Shown here one piece after another: positions 22,369 through 41,819 of a stretch of DNA of 47,996 nucleotides. Numbering within the stretch: position 1 is the stretch's first letter; each line of letters starts with the position of its first letter. A program made the position numbers and the translations under genes. Source of the DNA: an uncultured Opitutia bacterium (GTDB taxonomy: Bacteria; Verrucomicrobiota; Verrucomicrobiia; Opitutales; Opitutaceae); assembly GCA_903872425.1 (NCBI GenBank), contig CAIQKQ010000201.1, positions 1 to 47,996 of the forward strand, in the 5' to 3' direction. Below the pieces are notes generated by a model. That model saw nothing but the letters and a program-made list of their open reading frames with translations, was not told the DNA's origin and did not search any database.

Positions 22369-22498
22369 GGACTAAGCAAGGCGGAAGGATACGCGGGCGG
22401 AAAGGCGGAAATTGCCATTGATTATTCCTCGCACCGGGCAGGATAGTCCGACCGGCCTTTACGTTCCCCTCCGTGTTTATCCCGGCAACCCTTTCCCC

Positions 22499-25183
22499 GT
22501 GAAAAAAACATTCTTCCTTATTCGTGTCACACTGGTTTCCCTCCTCTGCGGTTTCAGCGCGCGGTCGGTTAGGGCCACCCCAACACCGGTGTTGTCGGCC
22601 ACGAAGGATGCCACCGGTGTGACGCTGCGGCTCTCGTCCGGTGTGTTGCGGCTAGAGGTGAGTGACGACCGTACGATCCACGTCACGGCCGGGGCAACGG
22701 ACATGCTGCCCGTGAAAACAGAGTTGGTGGTTAACCACCGCTGGACGCCAGCGGCGTTTGAGTGGCACGAGGACGGGGCGAAGTTCATGCTGCGCACGGC
22801 AAAATTTGGCGTTGAGGTGGATCGAGACACGGGCACGGTGGCATTTGTTGACGCCGCCGGGAAAACTCTCCTGCGCGAGCCGGTCGGCGGCGGCCGCACG
22901 ATGACCGAGACCAAACCGGCGACCGCCGGCGCGCCAGCGCTCTATCGCGTCGAACAATCCTTCATTGCGCCAGCCGACGAGCGGCTCTACGGCATGGCCG
23001 AAGCGCAGGACGGAGTGTGGAACTGGCGCGGGCTGCCGATCGAACTACGGCAGCTCAACACGCAGGCGGCGTTTCCGGTGCTTGTCTCCAGTAAGGGCTA
23101 CGGCCTCCTCTGGGACAACGCCTCACTCACGGACTTCAATCCCGTGGACCAACAAATTGAGCTCGTGGTCGAAGGCGCCGCCGTCCCTGCGTCCGTCGGT
23201 GGTCCGACGGCGACCGAGCAGTTGTCGGCTGCACCGGCGGCACCTCCCGCCCGTGGCCGCGGCCGGGGACCGGCACCGGCCGCGGTGCGCGTGGGAACGT
23301 TTACCAGTGGTGCGGCGGGCGAGTATGTTTTTTTTGCTAAGGACGGCGACCGCCGCAACGACCTCGGCATCGTCGTGGATGGCAAAACGGTTGCGCGCAT
23401 CCAGAACCAGTGGGTTCCATATACACTTCTGGGTCGCGTCACCCTTCCAGCCAACACTACGGTGCCGGTACGGCTGTTGGGCGGGGGGCGAGATGCAAAG
23501 CTTTTCGCGCGCCCGCTCGGCGACACAACCACGTTTCGCTCGCAGGTCGCCGAAGGTGTGGACTACTGGTTTTTCTACGGGCCGGAATTGGACGAAGTCG
23601 TCGCCGCCTATCGCACCGCGACTGGCACGGCCCCGCTCTGGCCGGAGTGGGCCTATGGTTTTTGGCAATGCCGCGAGCGCTATTCCAGCTCGCAGCAGAT
23701 TCTCGACACCGTCGCGGAGTTTCGCCGTCGACAAATTCCGCTAGATCTCATCGTGCAGGACTGGCAGTATTGGGGCAACCACGGCTGGGGTGCCTACGAG
23801 TGGGATACCGCGAAATATCCCGACCCGGCCGCAATGATCAACTCGTTACACGAACAGAACGTGCGTTTTATGATCTCAGTTTGGTCAAACCCCAAAGGTA
23901 AGGCCGGCGCCGATCTGACCGCGCACAAATATGTCCTCCCTGGCACTGACTGGGTTGACCAGTTCAATCCCGCGGCACGCGAACTGCGCTGGAAATACAT
24001 CAACGATGCTTTTTTCAGCGCCGGCACGGATGCCTGGTGGCAGGATGCCACCGAGCCAGCCGACGATGGCAACCCGATGGCCGGCAGCTCGGTGTTTTTT
24101 GGCCCCGGCGACCTCTATCGGAACTCCTATCCTCTCTTCGCTAACCAGACGATTTATGATGGCCAACGCGCGGCTGCACCGGACAAGCGCGTTGTCATCC
24201 TCACGCGCTCGGCCTTTCCCGGCCAGCAACGCTACGCGACGGCGCTCTGGTCAGGAGACATCAACGGCAACTGGGACTCATTCCGCCGCCAAATCCCTGC
24301 CGGCCTGAACGTGAGTGTCGCCGGCCTACCGTATTGGACGACTGACACCGGCGGCTTCTTCCGGCCACGCGACCAATACCAGTCCGAGGATTACGCCGAC
24401 CTGCTCGTCCGCTGGTTCCAATATAGCACTTTCTGTCCAGTGCAGCGCATCCACGGCTACCAGAGTGAGACGGAATTTTGGAAATATCCGTCGGCCGAGC
24501 CAACCTTGATCGCTTACGATCGGCTTCGCCACCGGCTAATCCCGTACACTTATTCGACCGCGTGGCGCGTGACTCATGATCACTACACGATGATGCGCCC
24601 CCTGGTGATGGATTTTCGCGACGATTCGGTGGCCGCCGACATTGCTGACGAGTACATGTTTGGCTCCGCATTTCTCGTGAGTCCGGTCACGCAACCGAAG
24701 GCGACGACGCGTGATGTTTATCTGCCGAAGGCCGGCTGGGTAAATTTTTGGACCGGCGAGCCGACGGCTGATGGCCGACACGCCACCGTCGCTGCGCCGC
24801 AGGATCAGATTCCGTTATTCGTCCGGGCGGGTAGCATTGTGCCGTTTGGTGCCGAGGTGCAATTTGCTCGGGAAAAACCCGCCGATCAAATCGAACTCCG
24901 CGTGTATCGCGGTGCTGACGGCAACTTCACCCTCTACGAGGACGAAGGCGACAATTACCACTACGAGCAAGGTGTATATGCCACGATTCCCATCCATTGG
25001 AATGAAGCGCGCAAGACACTCACCATCGGCGCTCGCGCCGGTGAGTTCCCGGGGATGTTGAAGGAGCGGACGTTTCGTGTCGTCTGGGTGCGCCCGGAAA
25101 AGGGCGCCGGCGCACTCGCCGTTAAGGATGCCGATACCGAAGTTCGCTATGTGGGTAATGCCGTTGAGATTCGCGCGCCGTGA
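22499..25183 (+). CDS. GH31 glycoside hydrolase (alpha-xylosidase-like) with PA14-like insert
   Basis: Secreted retaining alpha-glycosidase of 894 residues. The GTG at 22499 begins a Sec signal peptide (VKKTFFLIRVTLVSLLCGF); the longer frame puts 29 unrelated residues in front. Domains in order are an N-terminal beta-sandwich (about 40-235), an Arg/Gly/Pro/Ala linker, a PA14-like insert (about 262-342), the GH31 barrel, and C-terminal beta domains. The nucleophile is Asp516 in WWQDATEP and the acid/base is Asp587 in WSGDINGNW. A PA14 domain inserted in the N-terminal sandwich is known from the xyloglucan alpha-xylosidase CjXyl31A, which suggests the same substrate, but alpha-glucosidases cannot be excluded. 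It is followed by GH29 and GH27 genes in the same direction. Confidence 0.92.
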   Translation: MKKTFFLIRVTLVSLLCGFSARSVRATPTPVLSATKDATGVTLRLSSGVLRLEVSDDRTIHVTAGATDMLPVKTELVVNHRWTPAAFEWHEDGAKFMLRTAKFGVEVDRDTGTVAFVDAAGKTLLREPVGGGRTMTETKPATAGAPALYRVEQSFIAPADERLYGMAEAQDGVWNWRGLPIELRQLNTQAAFPVLVSSKGYGLLWDNASLTDFNPVDQQIELVVEGAAVPASVGGPTATEQLSAAPAAPPARGRGRGPAPAAVRVGTFTSGAAGEYVFFAKDGDRRNDLGIVVDGKTVARIQNQWVPYTLLGRVTLPANTTVPVRLLGGGRDAKLFARPLGDTTTFRSQVAEGVDYWFFYGPELDEVVAAYRTATGTAPLWPEWAYGFWQCRERYSSSQQILDTVAEFRRRQIPLDLIVQDWQYWGNHGWGAYEWDTAKYPDPAAMINSLHEQNVRFMISVWSNPKGKAGADLTAHKYVLPGTDWVDQFNPAARELRWKYINDAFFSAGTDAWWQDATEPADDGNPMAGSSVFFGPGDLYRNSYPLFANQTIYDGQRAAAPDKRVVILTRSAFPGQQRYATALWSGDINGNWDSFRRQIPAGLNVSVAGLPYWTTDTGGFFRPRDQYQSEDYADLLVRWFQYSTFCPVQRIHGYQSETEFWKYPSAEPTLIAYDRLRHRLIPYTYSTAWRVTHDHYTMMRPLVMDFRDDSVAADIADEYMFGSAFLVSPVTQPKATTRDVYLPKAGWVNFWTGEPTADGRHATVAAPQDQIPLFVRAGSIVPFGAEVQFAREKPADQIELRVYRGADGNFTLYEDEGDNYHYEQGVYATIPIHWNEARKTLTIGARAGEFPGMLKERTFRVVWVRPEKGAGALAVKDADTEVRYVGNAVEIRAP

Positions 25184-25218
25184 ATTTGAATATTTCCACC
25201 ACCTAATTGCGCGCTCCG

Positions 25219-27570
25219 ATGAAATGCGTTCCCTTGCTTCTCTCCGTGTTAATGGGCGCCGCCCAACTGGATGCAGCTGGTACATCGGCGGGGCGCATTT
25301 TTGAGGCAGAAGCGGCTGCTTATGGCAGCTGCACGAAACTAGCCGACGGCGAGGCTTCTGGCGGTTATCTCATCAGCCTTGGAAAGGTCGGGGACAGCAT
25401 CCAATTTAACAAACTTCCGGCGGCGAGCAAAGTGGCCATCCGTTACTCCTCGGTGCAAGTGGGGACGATTAGCGTCGCCATCAACGCCGCGCCACCACGC
25501 AAGGTGAATGTCCACTCTTCTGGCGCTCTGAGTGGCTCCTTTCTCCACGCGAGCATTGATCTCGTGATTCCCGCCGATGCCACCCTGACCATCAGCCTCG
25601 CAGACAGCGATGTCGCTCTGAACCTCGACCGCATTGCGATCGGTGACGGTGACTTGGGGCTGCCGCCGGACATCTGGAACCTGCCGCCCTTGCCGGTGGC
25701 TGCCGGGCCATATTCTGCCGACTGGAGGGCTTTGAGCCAGATGTATGCCGTGCCGGAGTGGTGGCGTGACGCGAAGTTTGGCGCGTGGGCGCACTGGGAT
25801 CCGCAGTCGATGCCGGAGCAGGGCGATTGGTATGCGCGCAAAATGTATCTGGAAAACGATCCAGTCTATGCGTTTCACGCCGCGACTTTTGGTCATCCCG
25901 CAGAATACGGTTACAAGGATATTGCCCACAACTGGGTGATTGACCGGTGGAATCCCGAAGAATTGATGAACCTGTATGTCGAGATGGGGGCCCGTTACTT
26001 CGTCGCGATGGGCGTGCACCACGACAACTTCGACTGTTGGGATTCCACCTTCCAGCCGTGGAACTCTGTCCGTGTTGGCCCCAAGGTGGACATTGTCGGC
26101 ACCTGGGAAAAGGTCGCACGTGCGCACGGCCTGCGCTTCGGCATTGGCTTTCACGACACGCCAGGACGGACATGGGGCCAGTTTATGACCGTGCGTTACA
26201 CCAGCGACAAACGCGGCCCGAACCAAGGCGTACCCTACGACGCCCTTCAGACGATTCTGGACGGAAAAGGCAAATGGTGGGAGGGCATGGACCCGGTGGA
26301 TTTATACGGACCAATCCACACCCGCGCGGACCCACTCCATTCCCCGTTCGCCAACCAATTCATGTGGCGGGTGGACGATGCCATTACGAAGTATCATCCT
26401 GATATGATCTATTTTGATGAGCACGCAGGCGATTCGCAAACAGATCTCGGGGTGCGAATGGGGCTGGGATTTCTCGCCCCGCCGCTGATCGCGAACTACT
26501 ACAACAAGTCTCTGCAATGGAACCGCGGAAAAATGGATGTCGTGGTCAACCTCAAGGGCGTGGGCGGGCGGTACAATAGCTTTCAAAACAGCCCCGAACT
26601 GCTTCCCCACGTCGACCGCTCCTTGGTCAAAAGCACTGAGACGATCATCGAATCTCAGATCACGGCCTATTCCTTCCAGACCGAGACCAGTATCGCTGAC
26701 TGGCATTACAAGACCGGCCAGAAATATATGGACGCCCCCACCATCATCCAGGCGTTGATGCGGAACGTTTCGCGCAACGGCACGATGCTCCTTAACCTCA
26801 CGCAACATGGACGTGGCGATCTCGATCCTGAAGTGGTGCGCATCTGCAAAGACGTTGGCGCATGGCTGAAAACCAACGGCGAGGCGGTTTACGGGTCGCG
26901 TCCGTTCGAGGTGTCGGGTGAGGGTGCAACTTGTTTTACCCGCAACGCCGGCAAAGTTTACGCTGCGGTGCTCGATTGGAGCGGGGGACCAATCACAATC
27001 AAAGCCCTTCGCGCTGGCGGGACGACTCTGGGTAAGATCTCCAAAGTCGAGCTGCTTGGCTCGGAGGTGGCGTTGAGCTTCATTCAAGACGAGCAGGCGT
27101 TGACCGTAACTCCCACTGGAGAGCCCCCGCCGCTCTTAGGCATCGCAAATGCCACCCTTGCTTCACGTGGCAGGGTCTTGCGCATCACCCACGACTTGGG
27201 CTGGTTTAATGACGACGATCCCGGCGTCGTAGCACCGGGTTGGATCCGGCGCTGCAATCTTGGTACTGCAGATTTCAACAATGACCTCACGATCAGTGAG
27301 ACGCCCGGTGAAGTGTGGAGCGCCTCCTTTACCGGAACCGGCGTCTCAATAGTCGCGCCGCGCGAGCCGGGCGCCGGAACGATCGAAATCCAAGTCGATG
27401 GCCAGGCGCCGGTCACCGCGGATTTGAACACCACGGGTGCGCGGCAGGCCCGGCAGGTGGTGAGCGAATTCTCCCGACTGGCTCCTGCCCATCACAATAT
27501 CCGCATCATTCATCGCGGTCCCGGCCCCGTGGCGGTGGATGCTTTGATTGTCCGCCTGAATGCTGAATGA
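25219..27570 (+). CDS. GH29 alpha-L-fucosidase, multidomain, secreted
   Basis: Exported enzyme of 783 residues expected to release alpha-linked L-fucose. The ATG at 25219 starts a signal peptide (MKCVPLLLSVLMGAAQLDA). A CBM6/35-like beta-sandwich follows (about 28-145: IFEAEAAAYG, VGDSIQFNKL, LNLDRIAIGD). The GH29 barrel spans about 170-560, with WWRDAKFGAWAHW, GVHHDNFDCWDS and the probable nucleophile Asp400 in MIYFDEHAGD. A beta-rich C-terminal region includes a jelly-roll-like module (about 670-783). The DEH context at the nucleophile differs from the common FDG/FDW form, so it belongs to a divergent subgroup. With GH31 it would suit fucosylated xyloglucan or similar glycans. Confidence 0.88.
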   Translation: MKCVPLLLSVLMGAAQLDAAGTSAGRIFEAEAAAYGSCTKLADGEASGGYLISLGKVGDSIQFNKLPAASKVAIRYSSVQVGTISVAINAAPPRKVNVHSSGALSGSFLHASIDLVIPADATLTISLADSDVALNLDRIAIGDGDLGLPPDIWNLPPLPVAAGPYSADWRALSQMYAVPEWWRDAKFGAWAHWDPQSMPEQGDWYARKMYLENDPVYAFHAATFGHPAEYGYKDIAHNWVIDRWNPEELMNLYVEMGARYFVAMGVHHDNFDCWDSTFQPWNSVRVGPKVDIVGTWEKVARAHGLRFGIGFHDTPGRTWGQFMTVRYTSDKRGPNQGVPYDALQTILDGKGKWWEGMDPVDLYGPIHTRADPLHSPFANQFMWRVDDAITKYHPDMIYFDEHAGDSQTDLGVRMGLGFLAPPLIANYYNKSLQWNRGKMDVVVNLKGVGGRYNSFQNSPELLPHVDRSLVKSTETIIESQITAYSFQTETSIADWHYKTGQKYMDAPTIIQALMRNVSRNGTMLLNLTQHGRGDLDPEVVRICKDVGAWLKTNGEAVYGSRPFEVSGEGATCFTRNAGKVYAAVLDWSGGPITIKALRAGGTTLGKISKVELLGSEVALSFIQDEQALTVTPTGEPPPLLGIANATLASRGRVLRITHDLGWFNDDDPGVVAPGWIRRCNLGTADFNNDLTISETPGEVWSASFTGTGVSIVAPREPGAGTIEIQVDGQAPVTADLNTTGARQARQVVSEFSRLAPAHHNIRIIHRGPGPVAVDALIVRLNAE

Positions 27571-30141: not shown

Positions 30142-33100
30142 TTACGGCACAGTGACACTGGCGGTCGCGGTTGCGCTGGCCCCCGCGGCCGTGACGACGC
30201 GGACGCGGTAGGTGTAAGTGTCGGTGGTTACCGTGTCGGTGGATGTGCTGTTGGCGGTGGACCCAATAATGGTGAAGTTGGTGGGCGAGGCCGAGACCGA
30301 CCGCTCGATCACATACGCCCCGCTTGTGAGCGCGCCGGGCAAGGTGAGTACGACTGCACCCAGCGAGGAGCTGAAGGCCGCGGATATGACTAGGGTGAGG
30401 CCAGAGGGATCGCTGACCGTTGCGAGCGGGCTGATGTTGAGCCGCATGAAGCGTGAGGTGGAGTTCGCGGTCGGTGTGCTGTCGCGGACGGTTACACGGG
30501 CAACGTAGGTAGCCTGGACGTTAGTGTTATTGCCGTCCACGGCGAGGACGAAGGGATTGTCCTTGAGGCCGCCAAAGCCGGAGAGGCTGTGTGCGCCGGA
30601 AGTGCCGGAATAGGGCGGTGTCAACGAAACGAGCGTCGTCCACGTCACGAGGTCGGGCGAGGACTGGACATCAATCTGCACGTCGTTTGCGCGGATATTA
30701 AAGTCGAAGGTTTCTGTCAGGTAGGTATCTGTGCCGCCGGGCAGCACCGTGAGAGTGGGGAAGCCGTTTTCAGCTGTCGGCTGGAAGAGCGTCTGCGGCG
30801 CGCCGATGAGATCTTTTCCAAGCGCATAGTCCTTAATGAGCGCGGCAAACGGCGGGCTGGCGGTAAAGGTGATCGCGGTGGTCGCAGCCCCAATCGAGGT
30901 GCCTCCTGTAGCGTTGGCCAAGGTGCTGAAAAGCGTCTGGCCAAAATACTGGCCGGCGTTGAGCGAGGTTGGTACCGGAGTGAGGGAGAAGGTGGCGGCG
31001 TGGAACTGCAGGTTGGTCTCACTCGATTCGGTAATGGCGTTGTCGGAGTCTACGAAAGTGCGGAAATAGAACTTAAAGTTGGCGAGCTGGGGGGCCTTGG
31101 CCGCGACGGTGCCGTCGTCTTCTGCGATGGTGGTGGCGACGAGGCCGAGCGCCCCGAGAGTGTCGCGCAGCGTGGGCAGATCAATGAAGTGCGTGACGGT
31201 TGCGCTACCCCCGTTGGGATGCTGGCCAGAGACTTCGGGGAGGAAGAGGCTGTGCGCGACCGGAGTGTAGGTTTTAATCACCGTGCCTTGGGTGAGGTCG
31301 GTCGCTGTGGTGGCGATGGCCATGAGGGCGAGCTGCACCTTAAACGGCTGCGAAGGCAGCACGGTGCCGAGACCGGTATTGGCGATGGTATATTGGACGA
31401 AGACTGGATCCTCAGGATGGTAGGGGTTGTTGGCCGAGAGGCCTTGGAAGTTTTGTATGATGAGGTCAGGCGCGCGCTGGATGACATAGCCGGGCCCGAG
31501 CACGCGCGTATTGTTGGCGAGGGTGAATTCAGCATTGGCCGCGCTGGCCGTGTCGGCCTGACCCGCATAGCGGATGAGCAGAAAATAATCGCCGCTCGGA
31601 ATGTCGAAGGGTAGGTTGATCTCACCGTCAAAGACGGCTTCGTTGCCGAACAGCTCGGTGTTGAGGTTGGCGAAGTTGCCGAGGTCAATGTCGTCGCTGT
31701 CGCCAAAGGTGCGATTGGTCGAGAGGTGAATTTCGAGGTCGGCGGCGTCGAGGCCGGAACCGAGCGCGGTGGAGGTGAAGTCTGCGCCGAGGTCGGCAAC
31801 AGTGATGGTGACCGGCAGACGACCGGTGCCGTTAGCGTCGTCGAGCAGGTAGGTACCGGTGGGCGCGACTACATCGGTGATGGCGAGGTCGAGATTGGAG
31901 GGCGGGACGGCGGCGTGCGTCGCGGGCGTGTTGGTGCGGTTAGTCGTATTGGTCGCCGGCACAGGCGAGAGCACGGAGAGACCGTCTACAAATACCGCCG
32001 AGGCCGTGGTCGTGCTGTTCTGCGAATAGACCCAGCTCAGCGTGTGGGTGCCGGAGCCGATGAGGAAGGCGACATTCGCCCAGTTGGTCGTGCCGGAGAT
32101 GACGGCCTGCACCGGGTCGGTGAAGAACGTCGTTGTCGGCAACTCGGCAAGCTGGCCGTCAATGAAGAATCCGAGTGTGTCTGAGGCCGTCACGCTGTCG
32201 GCGCGCCACCAGAAATCCACGACGGCCGGTCCGGTGACAGGCACTTGTAACGCTGCCTGCTGGCCGGTGGCGAGTACAGGCGAGCGGGCTACCTTGAGGC
32301 TGCCGCCATTGGGCGCGCTGGCGTCGGTCGCGCCGAACCACGAGCCGTCGCCACTGGTGGAGAAGCTTGGTAGATCGAGGTCGAGGCGGGCGAAGCTGGT
32401 GGTCAAGCTGCTGACCTGAGTGTAGGTCCACGAGACGGAATGTGTGCCGACGGGCACGGTGACGAGCTTGGGCTTGTAAGACGGCTGGAAGCCCGTGAGC
32501 GCAGCCGCGGAGAGCGCGCTGCCATTGGTCCACACCGACGGCGTCGTCCCAGTGGCGGTGAAAACCACGGCGGTGGTGTTCGACGTGGCACCGACGTTGG
32601 TAAAGTCGTCGCCGGCCACAAGGCTGACGATTTGGTAGGTCTCGCCGACGGTGAGCGTGCCGCTCGTCTGATTGGCGGGGGTGACGTTATCAATCGCGTA
32701 GGAAATTTTGTCGGCGGCCGCGCCGATGATTTGCCATGGAGCATTGAGGGTGGTCGGGCCGCTGACGGTGAGCGTGAGTGTGGCGGTCTGGCCGGCGGAG
32801 AGCGTGGGGCTTTGGAAGGCTGTACTGTCGGAGGCTCGTGTGTCTGTAACGGAAAACCACTGCGCGGTGCCCGAGCTGCTGCTGAAGGTGAAGGTACCGA
32901 AGTCGAGCGCGAGCCCGGGGGCGTTGGTCTTTTGGAGGAACACCTGGCGCGCGGCAGTGGCGACGATGGCATCACTCTCTTGCACGGCGCGGTCGCGATT
33001 GGCCGCGAAGATGAGAAAATAATTTCCGCCGACGGTATTCGGATTGAGCGGGATGTTAAACGGCCCAATCAGGGCGCTCGCAGTCGCGGTGGCGGAGCCG

Positions 33101-36100
33101 CCGAGGCCGGAGCTGAACGAGCGTGTGACGAGCAGCGTGTCGGTCGCGGGGTTGAGCGTGCCGTCGGACGAGAGATAGACCTCCAGTAGCACCGGCGTGT
33201 TGGCGGGAATCTCGCCGAGCGACGTGTTGCTCAAGCTGAATGTCACCGCGCTGAATGACGGACTGGTTGCGTCCAAGTCGGCCGTCCCGGACGCACTGAC
33301 ACTGTTGATGGCAAGCTTCGGCCGTAGGAGCGTGACAGGCGTGTCGGCGACATTGTTAGCTAGGTTTAGGTCGATCAGGCCGGTGGGCAGTGTGATCTCG
33401 GCGAGGAGGTGAAACGCACCTGTTCCGATATCCGGCACCGTGAGACCGGTGAACGTCACCGAGCGCGTCGAACCGCCCGGAATTACCGTCGAGATCGTCT
33501 GCGTGCCGCCGGTGAGCAGTGTGTCGCCGAGGTCCACGAGTGAGTCGGCGGAGAGGTAAAGCTTCACGACGGTTCCGGCTGGGATAGAGAACCCGCCTAG
33601 ATTGGCCACGGTCACAGAGGAGTTGGGCAGCGTGGTGTTGACGCCGAGGCTTGTGCCGGAAAGGGCGGGCGCGGTCACGCTCGCGTCGAGTGCGCCAACG
33701 GCAACCTGTTGGTCGGTGACGGTGACCGATGCGCCGGCGACTGCGCCGGTACCGTTGACGACGAACAATAGGTGGTAGACGCCGTTGAGTACATTCTGCG
33801 GGAGGTTAATCGCGTGCAGTGGGCTGGGCAGCGTGACGCTGGCTCCGGAGCCCAGGCCAGCCGTAAAGGAGTACTGGTCGAGCAGCACGTCGGCGTTGCG
33901 GTCGAGTGTGCCGTCGGCTGAGAGGAAGACCTCGATGCTCACGTCGCGGGCAAACGGCACCGCCCCGAGACCAGTATTGCTGAGGCGGTAGGTGACGTTG
34001 CCAAACGAACCCCCCGCGCCGACGCTCGTGGTGTTGGGAAACACAAAGCTGCCGAGCGAGAGCGATGGCCCGACGAGAGTAATGGACGTGGCCGCGACAT
34101 TGTTGCTGGTGTTGCGGTCGGTCGAACCGGCGGGCAGCGCGACGCGCGCAAGCAGGAAATAATTTCCCGGCGCCACGTCGGGGATGGCGACATTGGTCCA
34201 ACTAAGTAGGATGCTCGAGACTGGATTGATCGCGGCACTCTGCGTGATAGTTTTAAGCAGGATATCGTCGGCGCTGAAGGCGGCGTCGGCGGAAAGGTAT
34301 AGCTCAACCGTATAGCCGGCCGTGAAAGCCTGCAACGCATCCTGATTTTGCACGAAGGTCGAGATGCTGCCGACGTTGGTGTTGACGCCGAAACTACTGG
34401 TGGTGCTCGTTGGTGCAGTCACGGCGAGATCGGCCGCGCTGACGGTGACCGGAACAGCGAGGGCGTTGTTGGCCGTGCCGGGGTCGGCGTCCGTTGAGCC
34501 GCTCTCGAGGAGAGCGCCGTCGGAGTTAACGACGAGAAACAGATTATAGGCACCGCCGGCTGTGCCGGCAGGTACCGTGATGCTTCCGTGGGGCGACGGT
34601 GGCAGCGCGACCGACGACGGTCCGGCCGCGAGGCCTGCGGTATAGGTGAACTGATCGAGCAACGTCGCTGTGGCCGGACTGAAGCTAGCGCTCGTCGAGA
34701 GCCACGCCTGCACGAGTAGTTCTGTGCCGACGGGCAATACGCCCTCACGGAGGTTGCGGAGTGTATAAGTTACCCCGGTGAACGAGCCGCCGGCCGCCAC
34801 GGTCGAGCCGCCGCCCAGCACGGCGGTGGAGAGCGCGAAGTCAGGGCCGTGGACGCGCACGGGCAGAGCGGCGGTATTGTTGGCCGGGCCGGCGTCATTG
34901 TTGCCGGGTGCAGGGTCAATGCGTGCAAGCAATTGATAGCTTCCGGGCGCGACGGACGCGGGGATGGTGAGATTGGTGAACTGGATGAGCCGGCTGCCCG
35001 CCGCCGCGAGGCTGAGGCCGCTTGTCGTCGACGAGAGCAGCAGGTCGTCGGCGCTCAACACGGTGTCGGTGGAAAGATAAAGTGTGACGGTGAAGCCGGC
35101 GCTAAAAACCTGCGAGCCGACGTTCTGCGCGGAGACATTGATGACATCAATCGTTGCGCCGGTGCCGAGGATTTTCGCGCCGCCATCGGCGGGTGTGCCA
35201 ATGTTAGGCAGTGTTGGCGCGGTCACGGCGAGGTCGTGCGACTGTACGGCGACGGTCAGCGCGGCTGTATCGCTGAGCGTGCCGGACTCGGTGACAGCGG
35301 CATCTTCGTTGATCACGTAGAGCAACTGGTAGCTGCCGCCCACCGTGCCCGCGGGGATGGTAATATTGCGGGACGGCAGCGCGATCGCCGCGCCAGCCGC
35401 GAGGCCGCTGGCGGTCGTCGTGAACGTGAACTGGTCCACCAGCACGTCGGCAGCCGGATTGTGCGTGGTCGTGGTGCCAAGATAGGCCTTGACCAGGATG
35501 GTTCGACCGGCGGCGACCGCTCCCGTGCCACCGTTGCGGAGCGTGGCGGTCGTACCGCTAAGCGTGCCACTGGCGAGAACGGTATGGCTTCCGGCTACGG
35601 CCAGACTCTCGACGGTGAGATCGGGGCCGGCGATGGTCACAGTCGTCGCCGCGCCATTGGCCGGGCTGAAGGGGTTGGCCGGGTTAATTGGCGTGACTTG
35701 GGAGATAATGCGATACGTCCCAGGCGCGACCTCAGGGAGGGCGACGTCGGGCGCGACAAACGTAACGGTCTGCGAGGCAAGGCCGACGAGCGGCGCGGCC
35801 TGTGTCGAGGTCGCGAGCAACGTGTCGCCGGAGTCGAGCACGGCGTCGGTTGAGAGATAAAGACTGACGAGAAAGCTTGTCGTCTGCGTGCCCGAACCGG
35901 AGTTTTGCACCGTGACCGTGACGGGTTGCGCGATGCTGTTGACGCCGAGTGTCGTCGCTGGCACCGTCGGCGCGGTGACACCGAGGGTGACGCCGCTGAC
36001 CTGGACCGCACCGAACGACGGCGAGAAATTGAGACTGCCGTCGGCCACGCCGGTGCCGAGCTGGCCGACGGAGTTATTGCCCACAGCTCCGACGACGCCG

Positions 36101-37200
36101 CCGGTTGTGAGCGCGAACATAAAGTCTGCCCCACCCGCAATGGCGGTCCACGGGGCAAAACCGGTCTCGGTGTTGCCGATGAGCTGGGGCGAAGGGTTGG
36201 CGTTGTTGGTCACCTGCGAGACTGGCAAGTCAAGCTGGCCATTGAAATTAAAACCCCAGCCGAAGAGTTGGCCGGCGGTGTTAATGGCGTAGCTAGCGTT
36301 GTCGCCCGCGCCGACAGCCGACCATGACTGGGTGGACGCGATGCGGGTCGGTGTGGTGACGGCGAGACTCGTCGTGCCGGTGCCGATCTCGCCGTGGAGA
36401 TTGTAGCCCCACGCGTAAAGCTCGGTGCCGCGCAACGCGAGCACATGACCGAAGCCACCAGCGAGCTTGGTCCAGCCGGTGAGTGTCCCAATTTGGGTCG
36501 GAGTCGTGAGCGAGGCGGGCGAGCCAGCGGTGCCGCCGCGGCCAAGCTCACCGGTGCTGTTGTCGCCCCAAGCCCAGAGCTTGCCGTCGGCCGAGATGGC
36601 AATAGCGGCAACGTCGGTCGCGGCGATAGCAGAATAGGAGCGCGTGCCAACTACGACGGGCGTGCTGTGCGAGGTGGTGTTGCCCTGACCGAGCTGGCCG
36701 AAGCTGGCGTTACCCCACGCATAGAGGCGGCCAGGCGCGGCGGCGGTGTTCACGATGGCGAGGCCGAAGTTCTGGCCGGCGGCGACGGCACTAACGGTCG
36801 CGCCGGTCGGCAGGCCGGAGGCGCCGGTGGCGACTCGCACAGGCGTCGAAGCCGAGGTGGAGGCACCGGTACCCAGCTGACCGGATGCGTTGTTACCCCA
36901 GGCCCAGAGCGCGCCGGCGGTATCGATACCGAGCGAAAAATCGGTGCCCATCGCGATCGCGCTCCAAGTGTGTGAGCCGCTGACGAGGCCGGGCTGGGAA
37001 ACGGATGTAGTGAACGTACCTTGGCCGAGTTGGCCTAAGGTATTCGCGCCCCAAGTGCGGAGCGTGCCAGACGAGTCTATCGCGCCGCCGAAATCGCGGC
37101 CGGCCGCAATCGTGTCGGCGCGTACCGACACGGGAGCGAGCAGCGCAACGCCCGCGCCAAGGGCCAGCCGGCGGAGGAAGGTGGCGAGCGAGGTTTTCAT
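30142..37200 (-). CDS. Giant exported RCC1-CARDB repeat protein
   Basis: Protein of 2352 residues with a Sec signal peptide (MKTSLATFLRRLALGAGVALL). Residues about 28-395 hold seven RCC1 repeats (WGANTLGQLGQG, WGNNASGQLGTG and so on), enough for a full seven-bladed propeller. About 400-1420 hold eight CARDB-like Ig folds in four A-B pairs, recognised by LYLSTDxxLDxxDTLL and LLDQF motifs. About 1427-1745 hold two MAM/jelly-roll-like domains; the first carries a phage-tail-type motif near 1516-1548. A fifth CARDB pair starts near 1768 and 1910, and an FN3-like domain ends the protein (from about 2267). There is no PEP-CTERM or LPXTG signal. It starts 43 bases after the secretin stop, so it may be co-expressed with that machine. 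Adhesion or a surface-structural role is an inference. Confidence 0.9.
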   Translation of the reverse strand: MKTSLATFLRRLALGAGVALLAPVSVRADTIAAGRDFGGAIDSSGTLRTWGANTLGQLGQGTFTTSVSQPGLVSGSHTWSAIAMGTDFSLGIDTAGALWAWGNNASGQLGTGASTSASTPVRVATGASGLPTGATVSAVAAGQNFGLAIVNTAAAPGRLYAWGNASFGQLGQGNTTSHSTPVVVGTRSYSAIAATDVAAIAISADGKLWAWGDNSTGELGRGGTAGSPASLTTPTQIGTLTGWTKLAGGFGHVLALRGTELYAWGYNLHGEIGTGTTSLAVTTPTRIASTQSWSAVGAGDNASYAINTAGQLFGWGFNFNGQLDLPVSQVTNNANPSPQLIGNTETGFAPWTAIAGGADFMFALTTGGVVGAVGNNSVGQLGTGVADGSLNFSPSFGAVQVSGVTLGVTAPTVPATTLGVNSIAQPVTVTVQNSGSGTQTTSFLVSLYLSTDAVLDSGDTLLATSTQAAPLVGLASQTVTFVAPDVALPEVAPGTYRIISQVTPINPANPFSPANGAATTVTIAGPDLTVESLAVAGSHTVLASGTLSGTTATLRNGGTGAVAAGRTILVKAYLGTTTTHNPAADVLVDQFTFTTTASGLAAGAAIALPSRNITIPAGTVGGSYQLLYVINEDAAVTESGTLSDTAALTVAVQSHDLAVTAPTLPNIGTPADGGAKILGTGATIDVINVSAQNVGSQVFSAGFTVTLYLSTDTVLSADDLLLSSTTSGLSLAAAGSRLIQFTNLTIPASVAPGSYQLLARIDPAPGNNDAGPANNTAALPVRVHGPDFALSTAVLGGGSTVAAGGSFTGVTYTLRNLREGVLPVGTELLVQAWLSTSASFSPATATLLDQFTYTAGLAAGPSSVALPPSPHGSITVPAGTAGGAYNLFLVVNSDGALLESGSTDADPGTANNALAVPVTVSAADLAVTAPTSTTSSFGVNTNVGSISTFVQNQDALQAFTAGYTVELYLSADAAFSADDILLKTITQSAAINPVSSILLSWTNVAIPDVAPGNYFLLARVALPAGSTDRNTSNNVAATSITLVGPSLSLGSFVFPNTTSVGAGGSFGNVTYRLSNTGLGAVPFARDVSIEVFLSADGTLDRNADVLLDQYSFTAGLGSGASVTLPSPLHAINLPQNVLNGVYHLLFVVNGTGAVAGASVTVTDQQVAVGALDASVTAPALSGTSLGVNTTLPNSSVTVANLGGFSIPAGTVVKLYLSADSLVDLGDTLLTGGTQTISTVIPGGSTRSVTFTGLTVPDIGTGAFHLLAEITLPTGLIDLNLANNVADTPVTLLRPKLAINSVSASGTADLDATSPSFSAVTFSLSNTSLGEIPANTPVLLEVYLSSDGTLNPATDTLLVTRSFSSGLGGSATATASALIGPFNIPLNPNTVGGNYFLIFAANRDRAVQESDAIVATAARQVFLQKTNAPGLALDFGTFTFSSSSGTAQWFSVTDTRASDSTAFQSPTLSAGQTATLTLTVSGPTTLNAPWQIIGAAADKISYAIDNVTPANQTSGTLTVGETYQIVSLVAGDDFTNVGATSNTTAVVFTATGTTPSVWTNGSALSAAALTGFQPSYKPKLVTVPVGTHSVSWTYTQVSSLTTSFARLDLDLPSFSTSGDGSWFGATDASAPNGGSLKVARSPVLATGQQAALQVPVTGPAVVDFWWRADSVTASDTLGFFIDGQLAELPTTTFFTDPVQAVISGTTNWANVAFLIGSGTHTLSWVYSQNSTTTASAVFVDGLSVLSPVPATNTTNRTNTPATHAAVPPSNLDLAITDVVAPTGTYLLDDANGTGRLPVTITVADLGADFTSTALGSGLDAADLEIHLSTNRTFGDSDDIDLGNFANLNTELFGNEAVFDGEINLPFDIPSGDYFLLIRYAGQADTASAANAEFTLANNTRVLGPGYVIQRAPDLIIQNFQGLSANNPYHPEDPVFVQYTIANTGLGTVLPSQPFKVQLALMAIATTATDLTQGTVIKTYTPVAHSLFLPEVSGQHPNGGSATVTHFIDLPTLRDTLGALGLVATTIAEDDGTVAAKAPQLANFKFYFRTFVDSDNAITESSETNLQFHAATFSLTPVPTSLNAGQYFGQTLFSTLANATGGTSIGAATTAITFTASPPFAALIKDYALGKDLIGAPQTLFQPTAENGFPTLTVLPGGTDTYLTETFDFNIRANDVQIDVQSSPDLVTWTTLVSLTPPYSGTSGAHSLSGFGGLKDNPFVLAVDGNNTNVQATYVARVTVRDSTPTANSTSRFMRLNISPLATVSDPSGLTLVISAAFSSSLGAVVLTLPGALTSGAYVIERSVSASPTNFTIIGSTANSTSTDTVTTDTYTYRVRVVTAAGASATATASVTVP

Positions 37201-37243: not shown

Positions 37244-39001
37244 TCAGCGACGCGGGGAGGCGCTGGTGGGAACTTGGCGGGCAGGGGTCGTTGGCGCGGC
37301 GGGGGCGGGAGCAGCGGGCTTGGGCGTAGCGGCCGGCGCGGGGGCCATTTTCACGACCGAAGGAGGAGGAGGGAGGGGCTTAAACGGATCGGTGCCGTCG
37401 CGAACGCCGGGCAGGTCCTCGGGCTGGAGACCCATTGCACGAATATCGCCGGAATTAAAAATTTGTTGGATGGGCGCGCCATCCGAGCTGAGCGTCTTGG
37501 CGGTGATAAAAATAATGAGGTTGGTGCTACTCTCGTTTTTGCCGTTGGTCTTGAAGAGCCGACCGAGGAGCGGCAGGTCGCCGAGGAGCGGCACCTTGGT
37601 GGTGGTCTTGTTACTATTCTTCGTGAGCAAGCCGCCAATACCCATGGTGTAACCGTCCTTGATCGAAACATTGGTGGTAGCCTTGCGCGTGTCGAGGATG
37701 GGAATGTCCGTACCGCTGAAGGGGACAGAGCGGGTACTCTGGCTGACCTCGGGCGAAAGCGTGAGATGAATGTCGCCCTTGGCATTAACCTGCGGCGTGA
37801 CTTTAAGAATGACGCCGATCGGTTTATATTCGAAACCGCTGATGACGTAAACACCGGTCTGCTGGTTGTAGGTATATTGGGGGATCGGGTGCTCCTCGCC
37901 GACGTTGATTTCGGCCTCCTTATTGTTGAGCGTGACGATAGTGGGATTGGAGACGATCTTCGTGCCGCCGAGCGACTGGAGGGCGTTGAGGACGACGGTG
38001 AACTGCCCGGCGGAAAACACTGCGGTAGCGGCGCGCGAGACATCGGTGTTGTTTACGAGGCCCTGCAAATCAGTAAGAGCTGAGGTGGCGGTGTTATTAT
38101 TCGTCAGGGTGTTGGTGGGGGCGCCGCTGCCGGCGGTGAAAGTGGAGGAGGAATTGCCCGTGGTGGTATTGGTGTTGTTCGTGCTGTTGGTGCCGTTGGT
38201 GGCGTTGGTGCGGTTGTAGGTCAGGCTGCCTGGGCCGGCCGAGACGGCATAATTGCCGAGCGAGGTCCAATTCACGCCGAGGTTCTTCACGTCGCTGCTA
38301 TCCACCTCAATGAATTTGCTTTCGATAAGCACTTGATCAGTTGCGCGGTCGAGTTGTTCGATAACGGGCCGGAGCTTGGCCATCGTGGTCGGTCGAGCGG
38401 TGACGACGAGTCCGTTGATCCGGGTGTCCACGATCATTTTCTCGCCGTTGCCGGAGATGAGGGCGCTGAGCGGGCTCGCGGTGAGATCGGGCTTTTTTTT
38501 GGGGTCGTTGGAGTCGCCACCAGCCAAGTCGAGTGCCTTGGCATAGTTCAGGATGAAAATCTCGGTTACTAGAGGCTCTTGGTTGAGCGCGTCTTGGCTG
38601 ACGACCTTAATGATTTTAGGGTCTTCAATGAAAGTGTAACCAACCGGCGAGAGAACGGCCTTGTAGATGTCGCGCCACGTCACGTCATGCAGCTTAATGG
38701 AGGTTTTGCCCACGAGCGTATCAGGAATGACGACATTAAGTTCAAAGAGATCGGCGACGTTGCGGAGAATAACACGGATGTCTTCGTCGGGAAAATCCAC
38801 GGTGAGCGTGTCCTGAGCCTTGATGACTGTGGTCTTGCTCGCATCAGGGGTGATGACAAAGCCCGGTGCCGTCGGTGCAGCCGGAGTGGTCGCCGGTGTC
38901 GTGGACGCGGGGGCCGCAGGCGCGGCCGGGGCGGCGGCGGGCTGGGCGCGAAGCGCGGCAGCAGCAAGCAGTGCGGCGGCGAAGTAGGGCGTGGTTTTCA
39001 T
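37244..39001 (-). CDS. Secretin (PilQ/GspD family)
   Basis: Outer-membrane channel protein of 585 residues. A signal peptide (MKTTPYFAAALLAAAAL) is followed by a Pro/Ala linker, an N0/STN-like domain (about 60-130: LTVDFPDEDIRVILRNVADLF), an N1-type ring domain, an Asn/Thr-rich loop (about 260-305), and the secretin pore domain with GGTKIVSNPTIVTLNNKEAEI and the signature VPLLGDLPLLGRLF near residue 480. A Pro-rich tail ends it. The preceding pilM-pilN-pilO genes point to a type IV pilus or pilus-like secretion system. It has no lipobox, so it may depend on a pilotin or self-insert. The start overlaps the PilP-position gene by four bases. Confidence 0.92.
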   Translation of the reverse strand: MKTTPYFAAALLAAAALRAQPAAAPAAPAAPASTTPATTPAAPTAPGFVITPDASKTTVIKAQDTLTVDFPDEDIRVILRNVADLFELNVVIPDTLVGKTSIKLHDVTWRDIYKAVLSPVGYTFIEDPKIIKVVSQDALNQEPLVTEIFILNYAKALDLAGGDSNDPKKKPDLTASPLSALISGNGEKMIVDTRINGLVVTARPTTMAKLRPVIEQLDRATDQVLIESKFIEVDSSDVKNLGVNWTSLGNYAVSAGPGSLTYNRTNATNGTNSTNNTNTTTGNSSSTFTAGSGAPTNTLTNNNTATSALTDLQGLVNNTDVSRAATAVFSAGQFTVVLNALQSLGGTKIVSNPTIVTLNNKEAEINVGEEHPIPQYTYNQQTGVYVISGFEYKPIGVILKVTPQVNAKGDIHLTLSPEVSQSTRSVPFSGTDIPILDTRKATTNVSIKDGYTMGIGGLLTKNSNKTTTKVPLLGDLPLLGRLFKTNGKNESSTNLIIFITAKTLSSDGAPIQQIFNSGDIRAMGLQPEDLPGVRDGTDPFKPLPPPPSVVKMAPAPAATPKPAAPAPAAPTTPARQVPTSASPRR

Positions 39002-39513
39002 TTGCGTTTGGAAATGGGCCGGGTGGTTTCCTCGCCGTGATAGCGGAGGGTAAAAGAGTCGCTTTGGATGGCGGAGATGGTGAGCTCGTAAGTTTTGCCG
39101 TCCTTGGCATAAACGCCGAAGATGCTTTCGCCGACTTTGCGTCGGGTTTGACCGCCGAAGAGCAAGAGCGACTCGCCACCGAGCACAATGGTGCCGCTAG
39201 GCTTGATATTGTCCGCGATGGCTTCGATCAACTCGCGGTCAGGCAGCATCTTAGGCGCTGCCACGGGAGTGGAAATCGCGCTGTCAGAACTGCTGCCAGC
39301 TGAGGCGTCGGGTGGTATATCTTTGAAGGCAACCGGGTTAAATGGGTCTTTCACGACGGCGGGCAGCGGGACAACCGGCTTGGGTAGGACGAGTTTCTCT
39401 GCGAGCGCGAGGGCGGCTTTGCGCTGCATCGGCGGCGGCACGGTATCGGCAGCCGTTAGCGCGACGGGCAGGGCCAGAAGCACGGCAAAGGCGAGAGTGG
39501 TGCGGCGGTTCAT
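38998..39513 (-). CDS. PilP-position periplasmic protein
   Basis: Protein of 171 residues with a signal peptide (MNRRTTLAFAVLLALPVALTA), no lipobox, a KDPFNP segment at about residue 55 like the DPF motif of PilP, and a C-terminal beta domain (SGTIVLGGESLLLFGG, GESIFGVYAKDGKTYELTI). It sits between pilO and the secretin with four-base overlaps on both sides, exactly where PilP/GspC-like connectors occur, and may link the inner-membrane PilN/PilO pair to the secretin. Sequence similarity to PilP is weak, so the call rests mainly on context. Confidence 0.65.
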   Translation of the reverse strand: MNRRTTLAFAVLLALPVALTAADTVPPPMQRKAALALAEKLVLPKPVVPLPAVVKDPFNPVAFKDIPPDASAGSSSDSAISTPVAAPKMLPDRELIEAIADNIKPSGTIVLGGESLLLFGGQTRRKVGESIFGVYAKDGKTYELTISAIQSDSFTLRYHGEETTRPISKRK

Positions 39514-40130
39514 TTGGAGGTAGTAACCGTGGCGGGTGGGATGGCCAGCAGTTCGACGTTCGCATTGAGGGTGAGTTTCGCAGTCGGCTCAGCTCCAGTT
39601 TCGACGTCGCGGTTAGTCGTGGCGAAGACGACGTTACTAAAGCGGCTGAAACGCGGACCGGTCTCGATGCGGCGCACTAAATCCACTGCCTGCCGAAAAT
39701 CGCCGCTGACCATGAGCGAGTAGGCGTCGGCGACGTAGGTGGTCTTGGGGGGCGGCCCCTTGGCGGACGACGGAAGGATCGGGCCGAGGGAACGGGTGCT
39801 GATCTCTTTAACACCGGCGGCAGCCTCAATTTTGTAAAAATACTGAAGGTTGAGCGACGTCTCTTTCGGGCGCACGGCGCGTTCCTGTATCTCCTTGTTG
39901 GCGGCGAGAATTTGGTCGAACTCCTTCTGAAGATCCTTGCTGTTTTTGATGTTCGTATTGAGGCGCTTGGCCTCAGCCTGTTTTTCGTCGTGGATTTTCG
40001 TCTGCTCGTCCACGGCGTCAGCGCGGAAATACAGTACGGCAGCGAGTATCAAGCTGACGACGCCGCAGGCGACGCTCACGGGCTGTTTCTTGGCGAATGC
40101 CACGAGGTCTTTGCCGGTGATCGGTTTCAT
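39510..40130 (-). CDS. pilO: PilO-like inner-membrane assembly protein
   Basis: Protein of 206 residues with a short cytoplasmic N-terminus, one transmembrane helix (about 18-36), a coiled-coil stretch (about 40-85: rich in Lys, Glu, Gln) and a ferredoxin-like periplasmic domain (DAYSLMVSGDFRQAVDLVRRIE). This is the PilO layout. It would pair with PilN to form the alignment subcomplex of a type IV pilus-like machine. Start and stop codons overlap both neighbours by four bases, which indicates translational coupling. Confidence 0.75.
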   Translation of the reverse strand: MKPITGKDLVAFAKKQPVSVACGVVSLILAAVLYFRADAVDEQTKIHDEKQAEAKRLNTNIKNSKDLQKEFDQILAANKEIQERAVRPKETSLNLQYFYKIEAAAGVKEISTRSLGPILPSSAKGPPPKTTYVADAYSLMVSGDFRQAVDLVRRIETGPRFSRFSNVVFATTNRDVETGAEPTAKLTLNANVELLAIPPATVTTSK

Positions 40131-40792
40131 TTTTTGGCCTCCTTGTCCTTGGCCTCTTTGTTATCTTTCGGTGCGGCTTCCTTAAATTTCATGACGAGGT
40201 CAAACGCGAACCAGCCGGTTGCGGCGTCAATGCCTTGGTTGCTCGCCGAGACATCCTCAAAGAGTGCGCCGTAAGTTTGGTCCTCCCGGAGTTGGCGTAT
40301 ATAGGCGTCGGCCTCGCCGGCGGCCTCGTCCGGCGTGCCGCGCGCGTGGCCGCGTAGGGTGACGGCCGTGGGACGGTATTCAATGTGGGTGAGCGCGACT
40401 TTACGGGGTAGATGCTCGCCGAGGTGGAGGACGAAATCGGAAAGCACGAATTTCCCTGGTCCGAGAAACTCATCGAGCTCATGCAATTTCTTTTCCTCGA
40501 CCTGAAATTTCTGGAACAGCGCCACGGCCTTCAGACTGCTTTTCTCAAATTTCTGAATGTCCACCTCAGATTGAGTCACCTCAGCGGCCAACTCGTGCAC
40601 ACCCAACTCGCGGTTAACTGTAATAATCAGCAAGGTTAGCGTGATGGTGACAGCTGCGATGTTGATGAAAAACGCCGTCCGGACCGTCTTCGTGTCGGGC
40701 AATCGTTCGGCATTGCGAAAGTTGGGATGCCAAGCGGGTGTGACCAGCGTCGCCGGCTTCTGGTCACGAGACTTTGTCGGAAGCAGCGGCAT
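40127..40792 (-). CDS. pilN: PilN-like inner-membrane assembly protein
   Basis: Protein of 221 residues with a cytoplasmic N-terminal segment of about 40 residues, one transmembrane helix (about 42-62: FINIAAVTITLTLLIITV), a coiled coil and a periplasmic domain (LTHIEYRPTAVTLRGHARG). The family PilN binds PilM through its N-terminal tail and pairs with PilO. A charged Lys/Glu/Asp tail (KDNKEAKDKEAKK) is an extra. It overlaps the end of pilM by 29 bases and pilO by four. Confidence 0.75.
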   Translation of the reverse strand: MPLLPTKSRDQKPATLVTPAWHPNFRNAERLPDTKTVRTAFFINIAAVTITLTLLIITVNRELGVHELAAEVTQSEVDIQKFEKSSLKAVALFQKFQVEEKKLHELDEFLGPGKFVLSDFVLHLGEHLPRKVALTHIEYRPTAVTLRGHARGTPDEAAGEADAYIRQLREDQTYGALFEDVSASNQGIDAATGWFAFDLVMKFKEAAPKDNKEAKDKEAKK

Positions 40793-41819
40793 GGTTGACG
40801 GGGGTGGTGTGTTGTGCCATTAGGCCGAAGAGGCCGAGATGACGAGGAGCCAGCACGGAGGCCACCGGAGGGGCCAAAGTGATCTGGCGGGCTTGAAGCC
40901 AAGCGGCGAGGTCGGGTTTGAACACTGGCACCGCGAGTTGCTCCGCCAACGCAGCCTCGATCCATGCGAGCTTGGGCGGCAGCCCTGGACAGATAACCTG
41001 CCCGATGGACTGGCCGGTCTGCACTTCGTAGAAGCCGATAGAGGATTGAAGATCCTTAAGCAGCTTCTTCGTGAGCAGCGGTGCGAGGCCGGTGAAATCG
41101 AACGCGTTAGAATAAAAAAGTTTCTGCGCCGACTCCTCGTCCTTGAGATTCAGCTCCTTTTGCACGACTGGGATCATGCCGACAAAACCTTGGGTGATGG
41201 CACGCGTCGCCTCCAGCCCGCCCGTCGCGGAGACGATAAAAGACTGCGTGGCGTCTGCCGCCATTTCCAGCACCAAGGCCGGTGTCTTGCTCTTGGTGAA
41301 CGCGAGATAGTCCGCCAGCGCGCCGAGTAAGGCAAGCGTGCCTAACTCAAGTCGGTCGGGATAAAGCCCAGCTGCGAGCAATCTTTCCTGCTCACTCACG
41401 ACATCTTCGGAGGGCAAGCCGCAGATAATTGCCTCTTTCTGCGTAGCCTGCGCCATGTCATATTCCTTGCCGTCCTGGGCGTTGAGTAATATAAGCGTAT
41501 GCTGGTCGGGCTCGATGCGAAGCTGCTGCGCGGTTACCTCGTTGAGGTAGCCGGCCTCTTTAACGCGTTTTGGATCAAGCGTTACCCGTCGCACCACGCG
41601 GCGCGTTGGGTAGATGCCGCAAACGGCTTGCGTGAAGTTGGCTGCGCGCTTCGGCTGCAACGACTTCAACGCACCCGTCAGCCCGGCTTCGTCGTCCGAC
41701 GCGCATTCCCGCAATTCCTCTACAACCAATGGCGGTATGGCTGCAGATGTCCGTGCCACCGTTATCGTGTGCTCGGCGCAATCGGCGAAGAAGTGCTTGG
41801 TTTTTGGCTTTAGAAACAT
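40764..41819 (-). CDS. pilM: PilM-like actin-fold ATPase
   Basis: Cytoplasmic protein of 351 residues, first gene of the pil series. It is a diverged member of the PilM/FtsA-like family: an N-terminal phosphate-binding-like start (FADCAEHTITVART), the central LELGTLALLGALADYL and LVLEMAADATQSFIV (second phosphate-binding region), and a final GLPPKLAWIEAALAEQL segment. The assignment is supported mostly by its position ahead of pilN, pilO and the secretin. No pilin, PilB, PilT or PilC gene lies in this window. Confidence 0.7.
   Translation of the reverse strand: MFLKPKTKHFFADCAEHTITVARTSAAIPPLVVEELRECASDDEAGLTGALKSLQPKRAANFTQAVCGIYPTRRVVRRVTLDPKRVKEAGYLNEVTAQQLRIEPDQHTLILLNAQDGKEYDMAQATQKEAIICGLPSEDVVSEQERLLAAGLYPDRLELGTLALLGALADYLAFTKSKTPALVLEMAADATQSFIVSATGGLEATRAITQGFVGMIPVVQKELNLKDEESAQKLFYSNAFDFTGLAPLLTKKLLKDLQSSIGFYEVQTGQSIGQVICPGLPPKLAWIEAALAEQLAVPVFKPDLAAWLQARQITLAPPVASVLAPRHLGLFGLMAQHTTPVNHAAASDKVS

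What the first reader, a model, noticed from the sequence alone, without database searches (positions are those of the whole stretch)
30142..37200. Giant secreted protein combining an RCC1 propeller with CARDB tandem domains
The 2352-residue protein pairs a complete seven-repeat RCC1 propeller at the N-terminus with ten CARDB-like Ig domains, two jelly-roll-like domains and an FN3-like end. RCC1 propellers are common in eukaryotic regulators and in some secreted bacterial proteins, but an exported RCC1 head on a long Ig stalk suggests an extracellular binding tip. No anchoring motif is visible.
Basis: partly seen in the sequence, partly recalled or inferred. Interest (0 to 1): 0.6.

Follow-up and report, generated by a model that had tools for sequence, protein, structure and literature searches.

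The report
Pilus-operon giant protein with propeller head
A huge exported protein with a seven-bladed propeller at one end of a long rod is encoded as the last gene of this bacterium's type IV pilus assembly operon, and relatives fill the same position with giant proteins that often carry a different propeller, which suggests an unrecognised family of pilus-linked attachment proteins.

Summary
A 2352-aa ORF (30142-37200, minus strand) encodes a signal peptide, a complete seven-blade RCC1 propeller (UVR8 fold, Z 53), nine or ten CARDB-like domains, a MAM-like jelly roll and a C-terminal FN3. In 80 pilQ loci from Opitutia, the gene 3' of pilQ is an RCC1 giant in 12, another Ig-stalk giant in 39 (22 of 38 scanned carry a PD40 propeller), absent in 25 and unreadable in 4. 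A search of 387 phylum genomes seeded only with the RCC1-CARDB head found seven pilQ-adjacent loci, including the six best; four come from genomes outside the profile. The other 23 RCC1 loci had no pilQ. PilY1 (PF05567) is found in 0 of 57 relatives and 1 of 288 phylum genomes. Best reading: a type IV pilus-linked extracellular adhesin with an exchangeable propeller head, working like PilY1 but not a family member. Export route, pilus association and ligand are inferred. Closest precedent found: PilX2, an RCC1-propeller protein required for T4P-2 function in Saccharibacteria (PMC12206443).

The parts
30142..37200 (-). giant protein gene, 2352 aa, last gene of the pilMNOPQ cluster
   Evidence: dN/dS 0.15 against nearest orthologue
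37117..37200 (-). signal peptide, aa 1-28 (MKTSLATFLRRLALGAGVALLAPVSVRA/DT), Sec-like; the RR pair is not kept in all orthologues
   Evidence: sequence; alignment; pLDDT under 50 for aa 1-26. No dedicated signal-peptide predictor was available
36001..37116 (-). seven-blade RCC1 beta-propeller, aa 29-400
   Evidence: Pfam; model; UVR8 Z 53.3; profile hits HERC2 and UVR8
32938..36000 (-). eight tandem CARDB-like Ig domains, aa 401-1421, as alternating A/B pairs
   Evidence: Pfam CARDB 9.2e-9; one such pair is multiplied in the G002 orthologue
32371..32937 (-). first jelly-roll-like domain, aa 1422 to about 1610, interrupted by a ~55-aa module (about aa 1503-1573)
   Evidence: by eye and alignment; no independent structural match
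31960..32358 (-). MAM-like jelly roll, about aa 1615-1747
   Evidence: meprin MAM Z 10.9, rmsd 3.2 over 120 aa, low-confidence model
31510..31893 (-). ninth CARDB-like domain, aa 1770-1897
   Evidence: E 5e-4 (1e-4 to 9e-10 in three full-length orthologues)
30991..31476 (-). possible tenth CARDB-like domain, aa 1909-2070
   Evidence: by eye and alignment
30418..30990 (-). conserved C-terminal module, aa 2071-2261 (TFDFN.RA.D ... VRD ... RFMRL), kept in pilQ-linked RCC1 giants out to Coraliomargarita, where it is close to the C-terminus
   Evidence: alignment A3
30145..30417 (-). FN3 domain, aa 2262-2352; fastest-evolving part; missing from the distant orthologues
37244..39001 (-). pilQ secretin gene; its stop is 43 nt before the giant's start
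   Evidence: TIGR02515 PilQ 1.6e-70, under that model's curated cut-off; PilQ and GspD structures
38998..39513 (-). PilP-position gene (4-nt overlap with pilQ)
   Evidence: position and conservation; no family match
39510..40130 (-). pilO-like gene
   Evidence: profile best match Myxococcus PilO 3jc8_Oa E 0.01, also 5uvr and 2rjz PilO at 0.2 and 0.45
40127..40792 (-). pilN-like gene
   Evidence: profile best match Myxococcus PilN 3jc8_Na E 7e-4
40764..41819 (-). pilM-like gene
   Evidence: TIGR01175 PilM 1.4e-9, under its cut-off; sole PDB match Myxococcus PilM 3jc8_Ma E 0.0033

Best explanation
The protein is an extracellular adhesin, or substrate-recognition protein, of the type IV pilus system that the pilMNOPQ operon assembles. 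It is made with the pilus pore, crosses the inner membrane by the Sec pathway (signal peptide) and folds as a propeller on a long rod of Ig-like domains. It is then displayed at or near the pilus, most simply carried out by the pilus machine through PilQ as a tip-associated protein. The propeller is the far, ligand-binding end and the conserved C-terminal module the near end. In related bacteria the same operon position carries giants with another propeller (PD40 in at least 22, BNR/YCF48 in one) or giants in which only Ig-like domains were detected, or none, so the slot would set what the pilus sticks to. Shown here: the protein's anatomy, operon position, repeated occupation of the slot by two main giant classes, and linkage of the RCC1-CARDB head to pilQ loci. 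Inferred: export through PilQ, physical association with the pilus, orientation, adhesion, and the ligand.
For: (1) Operon: pilM to pilQ genes overlap by 4-29 nt, and the giant starts 43 nt after pilQ with no terminator-like site between them. PilM, PilN and PilO profiles each have the Myxococcus T4P machine protein as best PDB match. (2) Slot conservation: of 80 pilQ loci, 12 have an RCC1 giant, 39 another giant, 25 none, 4 unreadable; gaps of 9-84 nt in most RCC1 loci. Reading frames of 1000+ aa are otherwise uncommon in the same loci (67 in 1066 kb). (3) The slot is a unit: where no giant is present, polyprenyl synthetase follows pilQ in 19 of 25; in 9 giant-bearing loci the same gene lies after the giant. 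(4) Head-seeded search of 387 genomes: 7 pilQ-adjacent loci, including the top six, four of them outside the profile; 23 other RCC1 loci of the same list and 18 of an earlier search have no pilQ beside them. (5) Propellers recur in the slot: RCC1; PD40 in 22 of 38 other giants and in G024, G025, G029; YCF48/BNR in G056. (6) PilT and prepilins are present; no PF05567 PilY1 in 57 relatives, 1 of 288 in the phylum; no propeller gene seen beside the prepilin clusters looked at in five genomes. (7) Precedent: TM7x PilX2 has a seven-blade RCC1 propeller and is required for T4P-2 function (PMC12206443); PilY1 pairs a signal peptide with a propeller at the pilus tip (PMC7541494).
Against: No expression, localisation or binding data. 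PilY1 genes normally lie with minor pilins, not after pilQ, and PilY1 has its conserved propeller at the C-terminus, the reverse of this protein. In Myxococcus a bulky sfGFP on PilY1.3 stops pilus function, possibly by blocking passage through PilQ (PMC7541494), so a 2352-4628-aa protein may not pass that way. The head does not evolve faster than the stalk (dN/dS 0.16 against 0.13), so there is no sign of an arms race at the tip. 25 of 76 readable loci have no giant, so it is not required for the machine. The C-terminal module resembles ends common in Verrucomicrobia secreted proteins (own knowledge), so it may not be a pilus-binding part.
Confidence: 0.58

Rival explanations
1. A soluble protein secreted by the pilus system, like V. 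cholerae TcpF and E. coli CofJ: the pilus carries it out and releases it, and it acts away from the pilus as a colonisation or matrix factor.
For: Operon-encoded exported protein with no anchor and no pilin N-terminus found; TcpF is encoded in the pilus operon and carried by a minor pilin (PMC9565799).
Against: TcpF forms a trimer hooked to the pilus by a flexible N-terminus (PMC9565799); here the signal peptide runs almost straight into a folded propeller. A rod of ten or so Ig-like domains fits a tethered stalk better than a released factor.
Confidence: 0.15
2. A pilus-machine accessory that sits on the cell surface around the PilQ pore (collar or stabiliser) and is not itself the ligand binder.
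For: Strict position next to pilQ in carriers; giant absent in a third of readable loci, as an accessory could be.
Against: Size varies from about 1100 to over 4600 aa and head types differ, which is unlike a part with a fixed place in a ring; many genomes with PilQ do without it.
Confidence: 0.12
3. An ordinary surface or matrix protein that happens to be co-transcribed with pilQ and has no dealings with the pilus.
For: Verrucomicrobiota genomes hold many other large RCC1 proteins; operon neighbours can be unrelated, as the polyprenyl synthetase that often follows shows.
Against: Two main, largely unrelated giant classes occupy one slot across several families, and the RCC1-CARDB head is found at pilQ while other RCC1 loci are not. 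Chance linkage should decay over that distance.
Confidence: 0.15

Closest known systems
PilY1/PilC family (PF05567), pilus-tip protein of type IVa pili
   Same: Large exported protein with type I signal peptide, one beta-propeller and a variable other part, tied to type IVa pili; PilY1 supports priming and adhesion (PMC7541494).
   Different: No PF05567 domain; RCC1 propeller instead, at the N-terminus; Ig stalk; gene after pilQ, not with minor pilins.
PilX2 of the TM7x type IV pilus 2 (Saccharibacteria)
   Same: A seven-blade RCC1 propeller in a pilus locus; required for T4P-2 function and proposed as its adhesin (PMC12206443).
   Different: PilX2 is described as a putative minor pilin with the propeller at its C-terminus; here no pilin part, more than 2000 aa, Ig stalk, next to pilQ, another phylum.
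TcpF / CofJ, type IVb pilus-dependent secreted proteins
   Same: Operon-encoded and exported; proposed in the rival reading to leave the cell with the pilus (PMC9565799).
   Different: No sequence or domain likeness was sought or seen; type IVb systems; no propeller-on-stalk architecture known (own knowledge).
UVR8 / HERC2 / RCC1 RCC1-like domains
   Same: Same fold and repeat family for the head (Z 41-53, 24-26% identity for the best rows).
   Different: Intracellular eukaryotic regulators; no functional link implied.
Large Ig-stalk adhesins of bacteria
   Same: Long tandem Ig-like stalk with a terminal globular domain (own knowledge of the class).
   Different: No sortase, autotransporter or other surface-sorting family matched; coupled instead to a type IV pilus operon.

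Membership tests
PilY1 (PF05567) | C-terminal PilY1 propeller domain PF05567 | tested here: not met
   Pfam scan of the window protein and three other RCC1 slot giants shows no PF05567
PilY1 (PF05567) | type I signal peptide, not a pilin | tested here: met
   sequence and alignment; no N_methyl match in Pfam scan; no dedicated signal-peptide program was available
PilY1 (PF05567) | encoded with minor pilins | tested here: not met
   lies after pilQ; prepilin genes are elsewhere
PilY1 (PF05567) | located at pilus tip and needed for pilus extension | not testable with these tools
   needs genetics and imaging
Type IVa pilus operon (pilMNOPQ) | PilM, N, O, P, Q genes in this order on one strand | tested here: met
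   order; M, N, O, Q by profiles; PilP by position only
Type IVa pilus operon (pilMNOPQ) | retraction ATPase PilT and prepilins in the genome | tested here: met
RCC1 propeller | seven RCC1 repeats closing into a seven-blade propeller | tested here: met
CARDB | match to PF07705 above the curated cut-off | tested here: met
   whole-protein 35.9 bits against 22.7, but no single domain passes on its own; units shown by internal profile
Sortase-anchored, PEP-CTERM, autotransporter or lipoprotein surface protein | C-terminal sorting signal, barrel or lipobox | tested here: not met
   no such family in Pfam or NCBIfam; no lipobox cysteine in the N-terminus; C-terminus ends in an FN3 domain

The most novel reading that the evidence does not exclude
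The gene position after pilQ in Opitutia is a cassette for interchangeable giant pilus adhesins: the machine is constant while the propeller head (RCC1, PD40/TolB-like, BNR/YCF48) and the stalk (CARDB or Big_7) are swapped or lost, in place of PilY1, and RCC1 propellers were recruited to type IV pili independently in Verrucomicrobiota and Saccharibacteria.
Probability: 0.4. Interest if true: 0.8.

Novelty: new variant of a known kind. Interest (0 to 1): 0.64.

Why it matters
These genomes have type IV pili but no detectable PilY1, so what makes their pili stick is unknown. A conserved slot next to pilQ that is filled with propeller-on-a-stalk giants gives a testable set of candidates in a widespread group. 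It also puts a second case beside the RCC1-propeller pilus protein of Saccharibacteria, which would make RCC1 propellers a recurring extracellular recognition head rather than only a eukaryotic regulator fold. In the held library, searches for PilQ with Opitut, PilQ with CARDB and Verrucomicrobi, and RCC1 with CARDB found no paper.

Tried and rejected
PilY1 homologue: no PF05567 match. The first such search rang nowhere, even in controls, so it was repeated over 288 phylum genomes, where one match shows that the search can ring. RCC1 as such as a pilus marker: rejected, since RCC1 proteins are common in the phylum and most are not near pilQ. Tat export: the twin arginine is not conserved. Fast-evolving tip: not seen. 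Phage origin of the ~55-aa inserted module: no match in the phage collection. A regular expression for RCC1 repeats was first written wrongly and gave no useful counts; corrected. The first ORF picking lost some pilQ genes to antisense frames in GC-rich DNA; redone by tblastn. The C-terminal model is of low confidence (pLDDT 63.5), so only the MAM-like and FN3 matches are used. Three last literature searches aimed at pilQ-linked giants or propellers returned no paper on such a gene in this group.

Full report
What was claimed and what is there. The ORF is there on the minus strand, without internal stops. Pfam gives the RCC1-like domain at 4.6e-83. A model of residues 1-650 built on 12 relatives (mean pLDDT 86.2) has seven four-strand blades and superposes on UVR8 at Z 53.3, rmsd 2.0 over 359 residues. 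A profile of the protein's own repeats finds eight CARDB-like units at 401-1421 and a ninth at 1770-1897; a tenth is likely by eye. Pfam alone sees CARDB only in sum. Of the two jelly rolls one has a structural match (MAM-like, Z 10.9), as has the FN3 end (Z 10.6), both in a low-confidence model. Against the nearest orthologue dN/dS is 0.15, so the protein is kept by selection.

Upstream on the same strand lie five genes that overlap by 4-29 nt. The fifth is a PilQ-like secretin (TIGR02515 1.6e-70, below that model's cut-off). Profiles of the first three, made from relatives, each find the Myxococcus pilus machine protein as best match among all solved structures: PilM 0.0033, PilN 7e-4, PilO 0.01. 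These are weak E-values taken singly, but three in the right order, from one machine, are strong together. The fourth, in the PilP place, has no family match. The giant starts 43 nt after pilQ, and no terminator-like site lies between them. The genome also has PilT and prepilins.

Conservation of the position. In all five genomes of the same genus, and in G028, the full or contig-cut orthologue sits directly after pilQ. A scan of genome contigs with a PilQ alignment gave 80 loci, nearly all Opitutia. I classified the next gene in each: 12 RCC1 giants, 39 other giants, 25 without a giant, 4 unreadable at contig ends. The RCC1 giants include Puniceicoccaceae, Opitutales and Coraliomargarita members, whose head and C-terminal module align with the window protein at about 24-30% identity. 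Of 38 other giants scanned, 34 have Big_7 domains and 22 a PD40 beta-propeller; G056 has a YCF48/BNR propeller giant there. Where no giant is found, polyprenyl synthetase follows pilQ in 19 of 25 loci; in 9 giant loci that gene lies after the giant. On a PilQ tree the three states need at least 12 changes, with RCC1 needing 4. The state is clustered by kinship, so the 80 loci are not independent.

A test not seeded by pilQ. I searched 387 genomes of the phylum with the head alignment alone (propeller plus first CARDB domains) and asked of the 30 best loci whether pilQ lies next to them. The other 23, which match RCC1 repeats only, do not. Nor do 18 loci from the earlier search, one of which (L015) is a further tandem copy farther downstream of pilQ in G044. 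So RCC1 proteins in general are not pilus-linked; this head type is.

How it most likely works. An exported propeller on a long Ig rod is the shape of an adhesin. Its gene is made with the pilus pore, these genomes lack detectable PilY1 (0 of 57 relatives; 1 of 288 in the phylum), and the prepilin clusters looked at carry no propeller gene that I could see. PilY1 in Myxococcus is a signal-peptide protein with a propeller that primes the pilus and rides at its tip (PMC7541494). In Saccharibacteria, PilX2 bears a seven-blade RCC1 propeller, is required for T4P-2 function, and is proposed as its adhesin (PMC12206443). I therefore read the giant as a pilus-linked adhesin with the propeller outermost, at 0.58. 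The steps shown are anatomy, operon place and lineage-wide linkage. Passage through PilQ, attachment to the pilus, orientation and ligand are inferred. The main difficulty is size: a bulky tag on Myxococcus PilY1.3 stops pilus function, possibly by blocking PilQ (PMC7541494), and this family reaches 4628 aa.

Membership. It is not a PilY1: the defining domain was sought and not found, and gene place and domain order differ. It may still work like one. It belongs to the RCC1 fold family and, with the caveat above, to CARDB. Novelty: a new variant of a known kind, a pilus-linked propeller protein of a new domain make-up and gene position.

Noticed in passing
window 32480-32700 region (giant aa about 1503-1573); L101 giant aa 1880; L106 giant aa 1887: A ~55-aa module (GETYQIVSLVAGDDFTNVGA...FTATGTTPSVW) sits in the first jelly roll of the window protein and near orthologues, is missing in L132, and has extra copies at another place in L101 and L106, as if it moves within genes. 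Similar pieces match other proteins in G038 and G039. No phage match.
   Followed up: partly
L063:1983-15866 (G002): The G002 orthologue has grown to 4628 aa by about eight extra tandem copies of one CARDB pair (window aa 773-1049) at 51-56% identity to the window pair.
   Followed up: partly
G044:C33 (L073, L074, L175): RCC1 giants in tandem after pilQ: frames of 2215, 2616 and 2932 aa.
   Followed up: partly
L197:1434-6077 (G003:C11): A 1547-aa protein with a PilX-like start directly follows a prepilin cluster, perhaps a Verru_Chthon-type cassette (family name from memory).
   Followed up: no
L135, 3' end of the slot giant (G034): The slot giant reads on past the usual ...VYEVP end into an ORF6N/Bro-like tail, a fusion or assembly fault (tail named from memory).
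   Followed up: no
window 22412-27570: Two adjacent plus-strand glycosidases, GH31 and alpha-L-fucosidase, next to ABC transporter genes; an OppA-like binding protein starts about 97 nt 3' of the giant.
   Followed up: no
G102:C32:2685-3140 (L195): The only PF05567 PilY1 match in 288 phylum genomes lies in a genome that also has the RCC1 giant after pilQ.
   Followed up: no
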